This document shows positions 20,902-34,787 of a stretch of DNA of 64,000 nt, one piece after another. This DNA comes from Arthrinium phaeospermum. Lineage: Eukaryota; Ascomycota; Sordariomycetes; Amphisphaeriales; Apiosporaceae. Both the position numbers and the translations under genes were made by a program. The notes under the pieces were generated by a model, which did no database searches, was not told the DNA's origin, and was given only the letters and a program-made list of their open reading frames with translations. The stretch is from positions 310,001-374,000 of the forward strand of contig QYRS01000011.1 in assembly GCA_006503535.1 (NCBI GenBank), given 5' to 3'. The first letter of the stretch is position 1. Every line of letters begins with the position of its first letter.

Positions 20902-21909
20902 TCAGCTGTACTGCTGAACATACGCTTTACGGTGTTGGTTCTCATCCAACTCGTTGCTCCGGTTGAGGGGCGTCCACTTAGGCTCGTCCTTGAACAGACG
21001 CATGGCCTGGATGTACTGCAATCATGTTAGATAGGTACATATGCTCCGGGGAAATTGTAGACCTCAGTCCTGGTGGTACATACGTTGCTCTCGCTTGTGG
21101 TGAATCTGTGGTAAATACCAGGGGGCAAGATGATCAAGTCGTCCTGTGCATCATGACCTTGTTAGTAATTTTTTAATTACAAGCTGCGATGCTCGCCCCA
21201 GCATTCAAAAACGTCGTCACATACCTTCTCCAGGTAGATCCGCATCCACTCGTCGCCGCGGCTGCGGACGTCGAAGTAGCCGGCGCCGTCGCGGATGTAG
21301 CGGATCTCCTCGTCCTCGTGCAGGTGCTCGGAGAAGAAGCTCTTGACCTTCTCCTCGTAGACGTCGCCCATCTTCTCGGGGCTCACGATGACCTCGTCGC
21401 GGTTGCGGTACCCCCGCTCCGCGGCCAGCTGGTCCACCGTCGCCAGCGTCGGGTGCCGCGAGTACGTCACGCCCACGGCGGCCAGCTCGGCCTCGCTCAG
21501 GGCGCGGCCGCTGTCGTGGGGGAGGCGCTGGTCGCCCTGGTGGTGGTCATGGTTAGTTATTAGGTGCTACCTCGGGACTCGAAAAGGGAGGGAGCGAGAG
21601 AGGGGGGTCGATTCAGGGGGGCCGGCCGATGAGATGGGGGAAAATAAAGCAAACGTCCAGGAGGCATTCGATGCTCATCCAATAAAGTCAAAGTGGATAG
21701 GTATAGAAAAGGAGATTCGCCATGATGATGAGATGAGAATCTCACGATGTGCGCAATTCGTCACAGCATGAGTGGGCTGAAGTTGCGCCGCGAAATATGA
21801 CGATGCGGGGTTTTTGATGGCCGTGCAACAACTATCTCATCCATCGTTCGTTTCGTTTTTTGCCTTCTTGGCAACTTACCTCGACATTGTCATACCAGTA
21901 GGCCTTCAT
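20902..21909 (-). CDS. ADI1: Acireductone dioxygenase
   Basis: Four exons: 21909-21880, 21536-21225, 21143-21084, 21015-20902; 171 residues. The first exon encodes only [10 protein letters not shown]. This cupin enzyme of the methionine salvage pathway oxidises acireductone to the 2-keto acid precursor of methionine plus formate. Metal ligands of the family are present: His81, His83 and Glu87 in [10 protein letters not shown], and His126 in PPGIYHRF. Length agrees with eukaryotic ARD (about 180). The C-terminus [15 protein letters not shown] is also typical. The first intron is 343 nt, long for this genome; the others are about 70-80 nt. All donors are consensus. Which metal (Fe or Ni) is used cannot be told from the sequence. 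Confidence 0.95.
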
Positions 21910-24704: not shown

Positions 24705-25281
24705 ATGAATCGAGGTTCTAGCGGCGGTGGTCGGGGTCGGGGACGGGGGCGAGGACGGCCGTCCGGTGGTGGCCGTGGAGGCAGTGCTGCCGCCTCTGCA
24801 CCTGCAGTACAGCGTAAGTCATGTCGCATCTTCTCATTACATTTTTCTTGATCATGTTACTAATGCGACCCCTTTAGCCGGCGACCCAGTTCCCATTGGC
24901 CGAAAACGACGCTATAGACCGGGTACTAAGGCCCTGAGAGAAATCAGGAAATTCCAGTCCAACACAGACCTATTAATACGGAAGCTTCCCTTTGCTCGTC
25001 TCGTAAGTCTCAGTCGCCCCGTACTCACAATGCGTTTTTTATGGCGACTAACCTGCAATCCGTAGGTGCGCGAAGTTGCTCTGCAATTCCGACCCCGTGA
25101 CGAAGGCATGCGATGGCAGTCGCAAGCCATCATGGCCCTCCAAGAAGCAGCCGAAGCTTTCCTCGTACATCTTTTCGAAGACACCAACCTGTGTGCCATC
25201 CACGCCAAGCGAGTCACAATTATGCAGAAGGACATCCAGTTGGCAAGGAGAATCCGCGGTGTCTGGGGTGGCATTGGCTAA
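24705..25281 (+). CDS. CENP-A: Centromeric histone H3 variant (CENP-A/CenH3)
   Basis: Three exons: 24705-24813, 24878-25002, 25066-25281; 149 residues. The histone fold reads [48 protein letters not shown] and [15 protein letters not shown], and ends [16 protein letters not shown]. Features separating it from canonical H3 are a divergent N-terminal tail, a loop 1 three residues longer (RPRDEGM between the REVALQF and RWQS segments) and the altered C-terminus. CenH3 replaces H3 in centromeric nucleosomes and specifies the kinetochore. The N-tail is unusual: after MNRGSS it is nearly all Gly and Arg ([18 protein letters not shown]), like an RGG box. The introns at coding positions 109 and 234 are typical of fungal CenH3 genes, whereas bulk H3 has other positions. 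Confidence 0.95.
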
Positions 25282-30253: not shown

Positions 30254-31506
30254 CTACCTCTGTGGAGGCCACATCGCTGGCACCGATCCATAGCTGATTG
30301 ACGAAAAGACGGCCGGTGAATTACTCTGGGTGTAGGCATTGCCCACCTGTGCCCCAAAGTTGGTGTTGTCATGTGCGCCGAAATTGGAGCCGTGCATGAC
30401 AATCGACGCGTTTGGTTGCTCCGTCTCATTGCCGATCTCACTCATCCAGACTTTCAGCGTGTTGACTACCTTAACATAGCCCTCATCCTTATCATTGTCA
30501 AACTTGCACATTTGTCGGTGGTCTCTTTGAATTTGGAAGTCATCTGCCGAATCGAGACAGGCCGAATTACGATCCACAATCTGAAGTAGAATAAGTAAAA
30601 GATGGTGAATTGATAGTGCAGAGGGTGTATACTTACTCGTCCAATGCCTAATGTGTCACGCCCTTCCCACATACACAGCAGCTTCAATTCTATTCGATCC
30701 CGATCCCGAAATTTCACAATCGCTGTGAACTGCCGGAGGATGTCTATAAGGATGACTGAGTCCTGCTGGAGCTGTGTAGTCTTGTCGATCTTTTCGGGCT
30801 TGTTGCCGCGCAGGAGCCGCGCGAATCTTTTTGCTTGCTCCGCCCATTTGGCAGGGTCAGATCCTCGAAGTGGTGTGCCGATGAACATGATGCCTCTGAC
30901 TGCTTTGCTCATACTATCTTTGGCATTGCCCATCGAATTAGCGAGAACGACGACCTTGATTGTGCACATGTTAGCTGGTTTAGGTAAGTCGACAACTCAG
31001 AGAGAGAGAGAGAAACAAGGGGGCGCCGAGTGGCACTGACATCTGCACATATTATGCCCCCTAAGCTATGAGCAATAAAGAAGATAGGTCTGCCGGGCTG
31101 CAAATTCTGTTTCTCAGCATCTCAACATTCTGAGTTCTACTGGATCTGGATCACGAGTTTGCCCACTTACACAATTCACTCTGACCTCGACAAGATCCTG
31201 AATCAGGCGACGAGCAATGTCGCCAATGGATTGGTTGTCCACCTTAGTCTGCCAAAACTCAAGAAGGTGACTCTCGTAACCCCAGGAGAAGATTCGGACT
31301 TCTGGAAGTGCTTGTGGGAGCAGCTCTCTTGCCCAGTTCCGGCCGCTCGACGCTGTCCAGGTGGCTTGACGATTCCCACCTAAGCCATGGACGAGTACGA
31401 CACTGTATTGCATGTCAGAACACACGGTTTCAACAGAAACTAGGACATCAGACGTACTCGGCAACGGCAGCATTGCCTGGATCGTGCAAGGGGTCTTGGA
31501 AGCCAT
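30254..31506 (-). CDS. SesB-type alpha/beta hydrolase with C-terminal amyloid-like signalling motif
   Basis: Four exons: 31506-31171, 31106-31041, 30954-30637, 30580-30254; 348 residues, phase 0 throughout. The hydrolase starts with VVLVHGLGGNRQATW. The nucleophile elbow FIAHSLGG has Ser at about 126; FIGTPLRGSDPAKW follows, and a likely catalytic His261 lies in RDHRQMCKF. This is the SesB (serine esterase/lipase-like) effector domain common in fungal NLR proteins, here stand-alone. After the domain ends (about 290) comes a tail with HGSNFGAHDNTNFGAQVGN at 303-321, two NFGA units ending in a Q-V-G-N core like RHIM/PP-type amyloid motifs. A divergently transcribed ORF starting at 32411 carries a matching motif. 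By analogy with SBP-type proteins, activation by a partner with the same motif leading to cell death is inferred. The hydrolase assignment is firm; the signalling role is a hypothesis. Confidence 0.88.
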
Positions 31507-32410
31507 GATTCATTTTGTTATCCTGATGAAATAAGAACTTGATTTCTGGGACTGAAAGGGAAACTCAAAATGACCCTGGAGGCTTTGTATACGACTTTAA
31601 TCAATACCGAGCGCCGTATACATAGTAGGAACGAAATCTATGTAATATAGGTGCCTTCCTTCAATGGCTGTGGGGTGGAGGGTAGCGAAACCAGATGCGT
31701 CCAGAGGATTGACATGTCCAGAGACAAGTTCATTGGTTAAATACTACGAGCCCGTATGGCCAGGTACAGTTTCCAATCCATCCTTCTTAGGGCTGCAAGA
31801 TATTCACTTCGCCGGTAGGCTCTCGTTTAAGCCCAACATACATTCATTGTGCTAGATGCAGCTCGGCCTGAACCTGTGACATCTACTATGCAGGTTCATC
31901 GCCAAGCAGGATGCTTTCGACGCCCGGCTGTAGAGCAGAGGCGCTGGTTTCATCAATGCCATTGGCTCTTACAACGTACTTCTCAAGCCATCGTCTTATT
32001 TTGAAGCAGGCTGAGCAGTTCTTTGGCGACTTGACTCATCGTCATCTCTGAGTGACCAGTAGAGTCCATATTAATACGCCACATCGGGTAGGTATGCGGC
32101 TCACATGTTCAAGACAATAGTTCAGCTCTATGACTGACGCTTTCCAACTGGCGAATACAATGGCGAGTCACATCACATTGGAAGTCTGATAGGATGTGGT
32201 GTTGTTTTGCAAAACGCACTAAGAGTACGAGGCTTTGAGTAGGAAGTACTACCGATGGACGAAGCGGACCTCATATATGTGTAGATCTTCGATCCAGGTC
32301 TACTCCCCATAGCTTTGGAGCGTTGCTGTTACGAACCGTGACAGCAAAGTCCCCAGACTTGCTGCAACTTCGGACCCTGGGCAGTACCTTCTATACTTCT
32401 CGACGCAGAA
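31507..32410. other. Divergent region between the two motif-bearing genes
   Basis: Head-to-head spacer of 904 bases. No gene or repeat recognised; it presumably holds both promoters. Confidence 0.5.
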
Positions 32411-32641
32411 ATGTCCAGTGATGGCGTTCACGGACGTGGTGGCAATTCGTATGGTGGCAGTACATTCGGTGGGCGAGATACCGCGAATGGAGGGAACCAG
32501 ATAGGCAACACTGGCCAATTCGACTCGGACCAGCGACAGTATCAACAGACTGTGTCTCCCCAGACAAACATAATTATCAAGAAAAAGAAAACGTTCATTT
32601 GTGTGTCTTCAGTACCTTACGATATCTTCAGGATGCTCTAA
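32411..32641 (+). CDS. ORF with N-terminal motif matching the SesB-type protein; receptor remnant or unresolved gene
   Basis: ATG 32411 opens a 76-residue frame. Residues 16-33 (GSTFGGRDTANGGNQIGN) align without gaps to residues 304-321 of the divergent hydrolase with 10 identities of 18, including G-S-x-F-G, D, N, G-x-Q-[VI]-G-N. The position near the N-terminus is where fungal NLR receptors carry such motifs. The frame ends soon after a lysine run. A plausible intron (GTGTGT donor near 32600, TACTTAG acceptor near 32656) would join it in frame to a charged segment (VEKRQLNEEERSKSYIG). A further GTAAGG/CTAAC/CTCAG intron could follow. No P-loop, NACHT or repeat domain is visible before the next gene, so this is a short motif protein, an unresolved spliced gene or a decayed receptor. 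Confidence 0.4.
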   Translation: MSSDGVHGRGGNSYGGSTFGGRDTANGGNQIGNTGQFDSDQRQYQQTVSPQTNIIIKKKKTFICVSSVPYDIFRML

Positions 32642-33484
32642 TGCCCTCTACTTAGTTAAAAACTGCTTCATGCCGCCGCAACCCGATGGACACGCCAGCC
32701 AGGTTGAAAAGCGTCAATTGAATGAGGAAGAACGCTCTAAGAGCTACATCGGCCAACGTAAGGCTGCTCAACGTGAGGATAATGGCGAGATTGATGATAT
32801 GAATGAAGCTAACAAGAAACCCCTCAGCCGTCTCTTCGTCACCCTCAAGAAGAACTACGCGAGAGGGAAAGCGAACGACAACTCGTGGCCAACGAGTCTG
32901 CGGAGAACGCCCACCAGTCTCAAGAGCGACTGAGAGCGGCGAGGGGCCTCCGTCAAACAAAAGAAACTGACAATGCACGTAAGGCACTCTCATGGAAGAG
33001 CAGAAGAAGGCTAAGAACGGCTCTCGCGAGTCGCATCCAATGCAACAACGGCGAAGAATTGGTATGCTGGAGTACACTTAGTCATGCGGAGCAAGGGTCA
33101 GATCAGGTTGAACTGTGTTTCCATTTTGAAAACATTAGCATCAAAGCTGGGACAGTAAGTACATTACGGTATATACTTATTGAGATGTTGTCCAGAATTG
33201 CCTACCTACCTCTCAGTATTGACATGGTTGTTATCCCGGTTAAATCCAATCCAATATTTCTCTGGGGGACGAAAGCGGTATGCGGGGCTAGTGTGACTTG
33301 CGCTCATCAACAAATGCTAGGCCAAACGTTAGATGAACAAATCTGTAATCATGTTGTCAATTCCACCAGTGAACACACTGATAAAACTACGAAATCCAAT
33401 ACCACTACTCTTCGATAAATTACAGGCATGATAGGACGTGCAGCTTGCTCATTGACGACATACTTCAGTTCCTGAAATGTGGTG
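32642..33484. other. Possible continuation of the motif gene; otherwise unexplained
   Basis: Two overlapping open frames (about 32601-32933 and 32885-33418) encode charged, coiled-coil-like segments (for example QSQERLRAARGLRQ) in different frames, bridged by sequences that look like splice sites. No known domain. It could be exons of the gene starting at 32411 or its decayed remains. Confidence 0.4.
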
Positions 33485-34787
33485 ATGGATGCGAAGAGCT
33501 CATCCGAGGTGGCTCACACCTCGCCAGGTAGTAGTAGCGTCGCTCCCCCGCGGCCCAAGCTGCTACTGCCCGCCAGTTGTGATCCGCCCATGCCAAATAC
33601 GCCCCGGAAGCAGCTCGTATGGATTGTGAGTGGCCTACCTCCAGCAAATATGTCGTTAGTGCATTCTACTCACAGCTCTCTGTGCCTCATTCTAGGTGTT
33701 CGGCGGCACCGGCCACATGGGCCGCTCGCTGGTGAAGTGTGCCGTCTCGCGTGGTGATCTCGTCACTGCTGTCGGCCGCACGTTTGAGACATCGCCCGAA
33801 GCCATGGCACAGCAGCATCCGGGGCCGAACAGCCTGGGCCTCCTCTGCGACGTGCGGGCGCGCGACAGCGTGGCGCGGGTGATCGAGCGTACGCGGCAGC
33901 ATTTCGGTCGCATCGACCTCGTGGCCAACTGCAGCGGCTACGGCGTCATCGGCGCGTGCGAGGACCAGGACGACCATGAGATCCGCAACCAGTTCGAGAC
34001 CAACTTCATGGGCACCCTGCACATCATCCAAGCCTCGCTGCCCTACTTTCGCGAACAGCGCGGTGGCCGTTACCTCATTTTCAGCTCGACTAGCGGCGCG
34101 CTGGGCGTTCCCGGTCTGGGGCCCTATTGCGCGACCAAGTACGCCGTTGAGGGCCTCATCGAGGCGATGCTGTACGAAATCGACAGCTTCGGCGTGAAAG
34201 CGACGTTGGTGGAGCCGGGTCTGGTGCGCCGCGATGAGCCGGCCGACGACGGCGGTCAGGAGGGGGCAGGCCATCCGCTGCCGCTGCCGACATGGGGCCA
34301 CTTCCTGATCAAACCGGCGTCGGAGCCGTACGCGCACCCGGCGAGCCCTGCGCTGCACGCCAAGCGTATGGTGCAGTGGCTGGGTGACAAGCAGCCCACG
34401 AGCGCGGTCAAGTGCGCCGAGCTCGTCTGGCAGCTGGGCCACTGCGCCTACCCGCCTCTGCGCCTCGTGCTCGGCAGCTACGCCATCGAGAGCATCCGTG
34501 ACCGTCTCCGCAGCGTCACCGAGGAGCTCGAGGACTGGAAGCACCTCCACCACGCCCCGCCGCCCGAGGTCCTCGAGGCCGCTGCCGCTGCCGCTGCCGC
34601 CGCAGCGGCGGAGGCGGCTTCGACGGGTAACCAACAGCGGCGGGGTAGCGGCAATTCGGATACGGGACAGCAGCAGCAGGACAAGGAGAAGGGACCCGAG
34701 ATCAAGGCGGAAGGGGTAGATGAGGACGAGGAGATGGCGGGGGAGTCAGGGGGCGAGACGCAGGATCAGATTATGGTCATTACTTGA
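33485..34787 (+). CDS. Short-chain dehydrogenase/reductase with low-complexity C-terminal extension
   Basis: Two exons: 33485-33625 and 33696-34787; 410 residues, phase 0. The Rossmann fold starts at VWIVFGGTGHMGRSLV. Its glycine motif GGTGHMG is a variant of the SDR TGxxxGxG. Next come CDVRARDSVARVI, LVANCSGYGVIGACED, the catalytic Ser in IFSSTSGALG and the YxxxK pair in PYCATKYAVEGL. NAD(P)H-dependent carbonyl or hydroxyl chemistry is inferred; the substrate is unknown. The last 75 residues are low complexity: about a dozen consecutive alanines (GCN codons near 34575-34620), then Gln- and Glu-rich sequence, absent from minimal SDRs. The N-terminal 45 residues before the fold are Ser/Pro-rich and without a signal peptide. 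ATG 33485 is the first in frame. Confidence 0.87.

What the first reader, a model, noticed from the sequence alone, without database searches (positions are those of the whole stretch)
30326..32509. Divergent gene pair sharing an amyloid/RHIM-like motif: candidate cell-death signalling module
The minus-strand SesB-type hydrolase ends with GSNFGAHDNTNFGAQVGN (residues 304-321, nt about 30391-30338). The plus-strand ORF starting 904 bp away has GSTFGGRDTANGGNQIGN at residues 16-33 (nt 32456-32509). The two align without gaps with 10 of 18 identities, keeping G-S-x-F-G, D, N and G-x-Q-[VI]-G-N. The last four match the RHIM core Q-[VI]-G. In known fungal amyloid signalling (HET-s, sigma and PP motifs) a receptor carries the motif at its N-terminus, the effector at its C-terminus, and the genes are adjacent. 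SesB/SBP-type hydrolases are known effectors. All these marks are present here. The sequence motif differs in detail from those I know, so it may be a new motif subtype.
Basis: partly seen in the sequence, partly recalled or inferred. Interest (0 to 1): 0.9.

Follow-up and report, generated by a model that had tools for sequence, protein, structure and literature searches.

The report
Fungal hydrolase with amyloid-like paired tag
A fungal enzyme of a type used as a cell-death effector carries near its end an 18-residue tag that also sits at the start of the protein predicted from the gene next door, which suggests that the two assemble together as in known fungal prion-like death signalling, although the neighbour is not the usual receptor.

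Summary
Both 18-mers lie where stated, match at 10 of 18 residues and score 55 (BLOSUM62); the next-best window match scores 36 or 39, and 0 of 1000 shuffled queries reach 55. The likeness is protein-level: codon positions 1/2/3 match at 13/11/6 of 18, flanks are random-like. The minus-strand gene is a four-exon SesB-like hydrolase. In this genome 12 of 19 other hydrolase places of this type are followed by a NACHT, NB-ARC or P-loop NTPase.

The 'receptor' half is not supported. The plus-strand product is a 155-aa protein without Pfam or PDB match, and its coding signal breaks near 32,860-32,930. No NACHT or NB-ARC match lies in the window; no third copy appeared in 300,500 18-mers.

Both motifs keep N-x-G-x-Q-[VI]-G of the PP/RHIM-type core but miss other PP positions. 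Best reading: a divergent PP/RHIM-like amyloid-signalling pair with a small, perhaps decaying, non-NLR partner. Orthologues were not found; assembly was not testable.

The parts
31171..31506 (-). hydrolase exon 1 (start codon at 31506; VHG region)
   Evidence: translation and splice model; Pfam Abhydrolase_6 and DUF676 on the spliced protein
31041..31097 (-). hydrolase exon 2 (AHSLGG nucleophile elbow)
   Evidence: the following intron (30955-31040) ends in an unusual AAG acceptor
30637..30954 (-). hydrolase exon 3
30254..30580 (-). hydrolase exon 4: conserved-His segment RDHRQMCKF, linker, motif, 27-aa tail, stop
30338..30391 (-). C-terminal motif GSNFGAHDNTNFGAQVGN, residues 301-318 of 345
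32411..32600 (+). neighbour gene exon 1 (63 codons plus 1 nt)
   Evidence: splice model by reading the DNA; codon log-odds 0.016 against an intergenic mean of -0.168, sd 0.096, maximum 0.069
32456..32509 (+). N-terminal motif GSTFGGRDTANGGNQIGN, residues 16-33
32601..32655 (+). proposed 55-nt intron (GTGTGT ... CTTAG)
   Evidence: read; joins the two frames that carry coding signal
32656..32933 (+). neighbour gene exon 2, charged region, stop TGA 32931-32933; product 155 aa
   Evidence: codon log-odds 0.178, above the 204 (overlapping) intergenic frames scored (maximum 0.069)
32860..33010 (+). stretch where coding-like signal moves to a second and then a third frame: possible decayed C-terminus, assembly error or missed splicing
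   Evidence: weak, 90-nt windows

Best explanation
The locus is a divergent two-gene module of fungal amyloid-type signalling. The hydrolase is a stand-alone SesB-like (SBP-like) effector: a serine-hydrolase domain followed by a linker and a PP/RHIM-like motif. The neighbour is a small protein that displays the same motif near its N-terminus. Likely mechanism: when the neighbour's motif is locally concentrated and takes up a cross-beta fold, it templates the hydrolase's C-terminal motif; clustering then activates or relocates the hydrolase, which damages lipids and arrests or kills the cell. Shown here: the shared, protein-level motif; the hydrolase domain with its serine elbow and conserved His; the use of the same hydrolase type as an NLR N-terminal domain in this genome; no NACHT or NB-ARC match in the 64-kb window. 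Inferred: amyloid folding, templating, lipid damage and cell death. The neighbour is either a non-NLR trigger/adaptor or the remnant of a former trigger, and its broken-looking 3' part leans towards partial decay.
For: Motif match score 55 against a next best of 36 or 39, 0 of 1000 shuffles. Codon-position pattern 13/11/6 of 18 with random-like flanks and synonymous changes in 5 of 10 shared residues argue for constraint on the peptide and for translation of the plus ORF in this frame. Hydrolase domain by Pfam, two models above cut-off. HSLGG is present in 3 of the 4 paralogue pieces that cover it and the His of RDHRQMCKF in 4 of 4. 12 of 19 other hydrolase gene places in the genome have an NLR-type NTPase downstream on the same strand: 9 by NACHT or NB-ARC HMM (three of these, L006, L020 and L027, below the Pfam cut-off, the first two with a P-loop seen), 3 by reading a P-loop (L004, L005, L017). 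SesB homologues with C-terminal PP or sigma motifs beside STAND/NLR genes are described in PMC3321046 (passages) and PMC7885112 (passages). Both motifs hold N-x-G-x-Q-[VIL]-G, found in only 18 and 19 of 20,000 shuffles (pattern chosen after the fact).
Against: No receptor: no NACHT or NB-ARC match in the window, no motif in the 5' flanks of 62 NACHT and 12 NB-ARC hits. No orthologue of either gene found, so conservation of the pair is untested. The motif lacks the hydrophobic residue before Q and other PP positions. N-x-G-x-Q-V-G alone is not specific: it also occurs once in the scanned loci (L063, on the strand opposite to the NACHT gene). The acidic triad residue is uncertain: the VD of the hydrolase is shared by only 2 of 4 paralogue pieces. 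There is only one pair, so no profile can be built. The neighbour's coding signal shifts frame twice after about 32,860, which suits a pseudogene. No measurement or prediction of amyloid formation was made.
Confidence: 0.55

Rival explanations
1. Orphan or decaying locus: the hydrolase was once paired with a motif-bearing NLR or adaptor, the receptor body is gone, and the plus-strand gene is a pseudogene that kept its first exon. The module no longer signals, or answers only to a distant receptor that was not found.
For: Coding-like signal in successive frames B, A and C between 32,656 and 33,010; no domain in the product; no NACHT or NB-ARC match in the window. Paired loss of receptor and effector function has been proposed for het-s/nwd2 (PMC3321046, passage).
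Against: The shared motif is conserved at protein level despite saturated synonymous change, which would fade after loss of function. Exon 2 shows coding bias above the intergenic frames scored, exon 1 weaker bias within their range. No NLR remnant was seen downstream; the 32813-33412 frame has no Pfam match.
Confidence: 0.25
2. Interaction tags without amyloid: the two motifs are short matching low-complexity tags that bind each other or a third partner, and the neighbour regulates the hydrolase without templating a fibre.
For: The motif has few hydrophobic residues and lacks the one before Q; no Pfam match, so none to the amyloid-motif models that Pfam holds. That negative has no positive control.
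Against: Position at the hydrolase C-terminus and the neighbour N-terminus, Gly/Asn/Gln/Phe composition and the partial PP/RHIM core are those of known amyloid-signalling pairs (PMC3321046 passages, PMC9815663 sections).
Confidence: 0.12
3. Chance: two Gly/Asn-rich stretches that resemble each other by composition.
For: Simple Arg/Gly repeats in the same genome reach equal scores (6 of 2498 control 18-mers, of which the five printed are one repeat); a Gumbel fit on the shuffled cores gives p about 2e-4, not smaller.
Against: 0 of 1000 shuffles of either motif; best match in the window apart from Arg/Gly repeats; similarity restricted to codon positions 1 and 2 and to the motif itself.
Confidence: 0.08

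Closest known systems
PP-motif cluster hellp-sbp-pnt1 of Chaetomium globosum (SBP is its putative lipase)
   Same: hydrolase/lipase with a motif of about 18 residues shared with the N-terminus of an adjacent gene's product; N-x-G-x-Q-phi-G part of the core
   Different: No NLR (PNT1) and no HELLP here; no hydrophobic residue before Q; the Phe lies at -11 from Q, against -8 or -9 in the 2012 consensus; no mirrored half after Q
sigma cluster sesA-sesB-het-eN of Nectria haematococca
   Same: SesB-type hydrolase with a Gly/Asn/Gln-rich C-terminal tag shared with neighbouring genes, one of them (sesA) not an NLR and proposed to modify sesB
   Different: No GxGxQFN / GGTQNINT repeats, no Pfam Ses_B match, no STAND gene; the partner's motif is N-terminal, not C-terminal
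PUASM motif (PNP_UDP effectors)
   Same: Gly, Gln and Phe pattern; the plus protein has G at +5 and F at +7 from Q
   Different: FxGxGxQxxGxGxF is not met; the effector is a hydrolase, not PNP_UDP
Mammalian RHIM
   Same: Q-[VI]-G core, preceded by G two residues before Q
   Different: The core G-(I,V)-Q-(I,V)-G needs a hydrophobic residue before Q; here it is Ala or Asn

Membership tests
SesB-like (SBP-like) hydrolase effector | alpha/beta hydrolase domain with nucleophile elbow and conserved His | tested here: met
   Abhydrolase_6 and DUF676 above cut-off; HSLGG in 3 of 4 and the His in 4 of 4 paralogue pieces covering them
SesB-like (SBP-like) hydrolase effector | conserved acidic triad residue | tested here: inconclusive
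   VD of the hydrolase shared by 2 of 4 paralogue pieces covering it
SesB-like (SBP-like) hydrolase effector | domain type also found fused to NLR NTPases | tested here: met
   12 of 19 other hydrolase places in the genome, 3 of them by HMM hits below cut-off
NLR-effector amyloid signalling pair | same motif at effector C-terminus and neighbour N-terminus | tested here: met
NLR-effector amyloid signalling pair | neighbour is an NLR (NACHT or NB-ARC) | tested here: not met
   no NACHT or NB-ARC hit within G000:C11:310001-374000 at E <= 0.01 (lists are lower bounds); nearest listed is C11:293717-294166; no domain in the product
NLR-effector amyloid signalling pair | motif forms seedable amyloid that activates the effector | not testable with these tools
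   needs peptides and a prion assay
PP motif | core NxGxQxGxN (PMC9815663 section 6) | tested here: inconclusive
   N(-4), G(-2), Q and G(+2) met in both; N is at +3, not +4
PP motif | consensus FxGx(x)NxGLQLxGxNxGxL (PMC3321046) | tested here: not met
   A or N instead of L before Q; F at -11 instead of -8 or -9; no mirrored half after Q
sigma motif | three repeats of GxGxQFNxx / GGTQNINT; Pfam Ses_B or NACHT_sigma | tested here: not met
   pattern absent by inspection; no Ses_B or NACHT_sigma match on the tail or spliced proteins at E <= 10; HMMER filters drop weak hits and no positive control was available
RHIM | core G-(I,V)-Q-(I,V)-G (PMC7885112) | tested here: not met
   GAQVG and GNQIG: the first hydrophobic position is missing
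PUASM | FxGxGxQxxGxGxF on a PNP_UDP effector (PMC9815663 section 24) | tested here: not met
   sequence inspection; the effector is a hydrolase

The most novel reading that the evidence does not exclude
A new fungal amyloid-signalling motif family (G-S-x-F-G-x2-D-x2-N-x-G-x-Q-[VI]-G-N), perhaps a bridge between PP and RHIM types, in which the trigger of a SesB-like lipase is a small non-NLR protein: a minimal two-component death switch without a NOD receptor.
Probability: 0.2. Interest if true: 0.75.

Novelty: new variant of a known kind. Interest (0 to 1): 0.5.

Why it matters
In the fungal systems described in the passages read here an NLR starts the fibre; the nearest precedent for a non-NLR partner is sesA, proposed to modify sesB (PMC3321046), and that locus also has a STAND gene. 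A hydrolase effector whose partner is a small, domain-free protein would show that the tag system can work without the NOD receptor, or would catch such a system while it is losing its receptor. The motif is also a candidate relative of PP/RHIM that differs in the position before Q, so cross-seeding with PP and RHIM can be tested directly.

Tried and rejected
1. NLR partner in the neighbourhood: none among the NACHT and NB-ARC matches listed for the window. The nearest NACHT, about 46 kb from the hydrolase (C11:293717), has a long upstream reading frame and no such motif in the 1.8 kb read (L040).

2. A third motif copy in the genome: protein queries with the hydrolase tail and with the plus N-terminus each found only themselves. 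The tail query did not even recover the plus partner, so that search is insensitive. A direct scan of 300,500 18-mers in 120 of the 128 held loci (the 8 holding the pair itself left out) gave a best profile score of 26.5 against 77.5 and 76.5 for the members. The scan covers the 5' side of 62 NACHT and 12 NB-ARC hits, the 3' side of 13 HeLo hits, 18 PigL_N loci and the hydrolase loci; the 9 PNP_UDP hits were not cut out. It is exon-level, reaches 1.2-1.8 kb, and would miss motifs split by introns or lying further off. Its looser PP/RHIM-core patterns gave six matches (L063, L102, L112, L114, L121, L124); L112, L114 and L121 lie at the start of the PigL_N domain, none resembles the motif otherwise.

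3. Orthologues: spliced hydrolase 1 hit, P0001, 264 aa on a 1,502-base contig, ending soon after the conserved His, possibly incomplete; spliced plus protein 0 hits of 8 candidates; hydrolase exon 4 0 hits of 1 candidate at E <= 10. The collection seems poor in intron-bearing fungal genes, so the misses say little.

4. Pfam and PDB searches of the hydrolase tail and of the plus product: nothing at E <= 10. The genome searches for Ses_B and NACHT_sigma found nothing; Ses_B rang in none of the 14 control genomes and NACHT_sigma in one, below its cut-off, so neither shows absence.

5. Recent DNA duplication of the motif: rejected, because third codon positions and flanks are random-like.

6. Structure prediction was not tried: the tool takes window or locus translations letter for letter, and the hydrolase is spliced.

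7. The first significance script stopped with an error after the window ranking; the shuffles were run anew.

Full report
What is there. On the minus strand a four-exon gene (31506-31171, 31097-31041, 30954-30637, 30580-30254) encodes a 345-aa protein. Pfam matches residues 36-177 to Abhydrolase_6 (1.5e-7) and 36-156 to DUF676 (5e-6), both above cut-off. The second intron ends in AAG, an unusual acceptor, but the joined sequence aligns with paralogues. In an alignment with five typed paralogue pieces of the same genome, one lacking the N-terminal half and one ending early, the serine elbow HSLGG is present in 3 of the 4 pieces that cover it (the fourth has HGFGG) and the histidine of RDHRQMCKF in 4 of 4; the VD that I first took for the acidic residue is shared by only 2 of 4. 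After the domain come a linker, the 18-residue motif (301-318) and a 27-residue tail. On the plus strand an ATG at 32411 opens a frame with the second motif at residues 16-33. A 55-nt intron (32601-32655, my reading) joins it to a second stretch ending at TGA 32931-32933, giving 155 aa. There are 904 bp between the two start codons.

Is the match real? Identity is 10 of 18, BLOSUM62 score 55. The next best match in the whole window scores 36 or 39. None of 1000 shuffles of either motif reaches 55 against the window, and none of 5000 shuffled region pairs does. Stricter controls qualify this. A Gumbel fit to shuffles of the two Gly/Asn-rich cores gives p about 2e-4. Arg/Gly repeats in this genome reach the same score by composition: 6 of 2498 natural Gly/Asn-rich control 18-mers, the five printed being pieces of one repeat, and 4 of 1186 in the window besides the pair itself. 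The strongest evidence is the codon pattern. First, second and third positions agree at 13, 11 and 6 of 18, adjoining 30-nt flanks agree at 7 and 4 of 30, and five of ten shared residues use different codons, Ser among them as TCC against AGT. This is what constraint on a peptide leaves after synonymous sites have saturated. It also argues that the plus ORF is, or was until lately, translated in this frame. The NG86 dN of 0.47 against a saturated dS rests on 18 codons only.

What the hydrolase is. A search of the window's own genome (48.4 Mb, 19 contigs, unnamed) found 27 matching stretches. Four belong to the window gene; the other 23 fall into 19 gene places by my grouping of neighbouring exons. 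Nine have a NACHT or NB-ARC match downstream on the same strand: L006, L007, L011, L012/L018, L014, L016, L020/L026, L022/L023 and L027, of which L006, L020/L026 and L027 rest on matches below the Pfam cut-off. Three more show a P-loop NTPase when read (L004, L005, L017). The remaining seven show none in the calls made, which did not read far beyond them. One of these, at C6:1603829-1604917, also ends in an Asn/Gly-rich tail. So this hydrolase type serves as an N-terminal NLR domain in this organism, and the window copy is a stand-alone version with a tag in place of the NTPase. PMC3321046 describes these two alternative architectures (passages).

What the neighbour is not. It has no Pfam or PDB match at E <= 10. 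No NACHT or NB-ARC match at E <= 0.01 is listed in the 64 kb; the nearest NACHT is about 46 kb from the hydrolase, outside the window (the lists are lower bounds). Six-frame scanning of the 5' side of the 62 listed NACHT hits and the 12 listed NB-ARC hits, the 3' side of 13 HeLo hits and 18 PigL_N loci found nothing like the motif. One search did find one N-x-G-x-Q-V-G string (L063), on the strand opposite to the NACHT gene and without further likeness, and five other loose core matches. Coding bias runs in frame A through exon 1 (0.016, within the range of the intergenic frames) and in frame B through exon 2 (0.178, above the maximum of 0.069 of the 204 overlapping intergenic frames), then shifts to A near 32,860 and to C near 32,930-33,010. 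This suggests a frame-broken 3' part, an assembly error or missed splicing. The method is weak: hydrolase exon 1 scores only -0.031. No base was put back.

How it probably works. By analogy with PP and sigma clusters, the neighbour's N-terminal motif would template the hydrolase's C-terminal motif into a cross-beta stack, clustering and switching on the hydrolase. The amyloid step, the lipid target and the death outcome are inferred. The missing NLR means that the signal source is unknown: the small protein may be the trigger, an adaptor to a distant receptor, or a remnant. PMC9815663 section 24 also suspects signalling between NLRs and effectors of non-adjacent genes.

Relation to known motifs. 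PMC9815663 (sections 6, 19 and 24 read) treats HRAM, PP, sigma and PUASM as the fungal families and lists further unassigned motifs shown only as logos, which I could not see; a match to one of those is possible. Both motifs here keep N(-4), G(-2), Q and G(+2) of the PP core NxGxQxGxN, and N-x-G-x-Q-[VIL]-G arises in only 18 and 19 of 20,000 shuffles, a pattern chosen after the fact. They fail the hydrophobic position before Q, the spacing of Phe, and the mirrored half. They are therefore PP/RHIM-like, not shown to be PP members. Five paper searches listed nothing that I recognised as a description of this motif; they cannot show that none exists.

Verdict. That the organism is a filamentous ascomycete is my inference from its gene content; no call names it.

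Noticed in passing
G000:C6:1603829-1604917 (L008, L015, L096): A second stand-alone SesB-like hydrolase whose C-terminus ends in an Asn/Gly-rich tail (GNVVQSNVVNGSQTVNGDMYFG); no partner with a similar stretch in about 3.5 kb fetched on either side or in the insensitive genome search.
   Followed up: partly
G000, whole genome: 62 NACHT and 12 NB-ARC matches at E <= 0.01 (some are exons of one gene or shared between the lists); hydrolase-NTPase fusions are common.
   Followed up: partly
30955-31040: The second hydrolase intron appears to use an AAG 3' splice site.
   Followed up: no
21488-21553 and 24714-24791: Arg/Gly-rich reading-frame stretches with the highest matches to the rest of the window; besides the pair they are the only Gly/Asn-rich 18-mers reaching 55.
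   Followed up: no
33696-34784: Next plus-strand reading frame looks like a short-chain dehydrogenase, recognised from memory, not by a call; it leaves about 1.3 kb for the neighbour gene.
   Followed up: no
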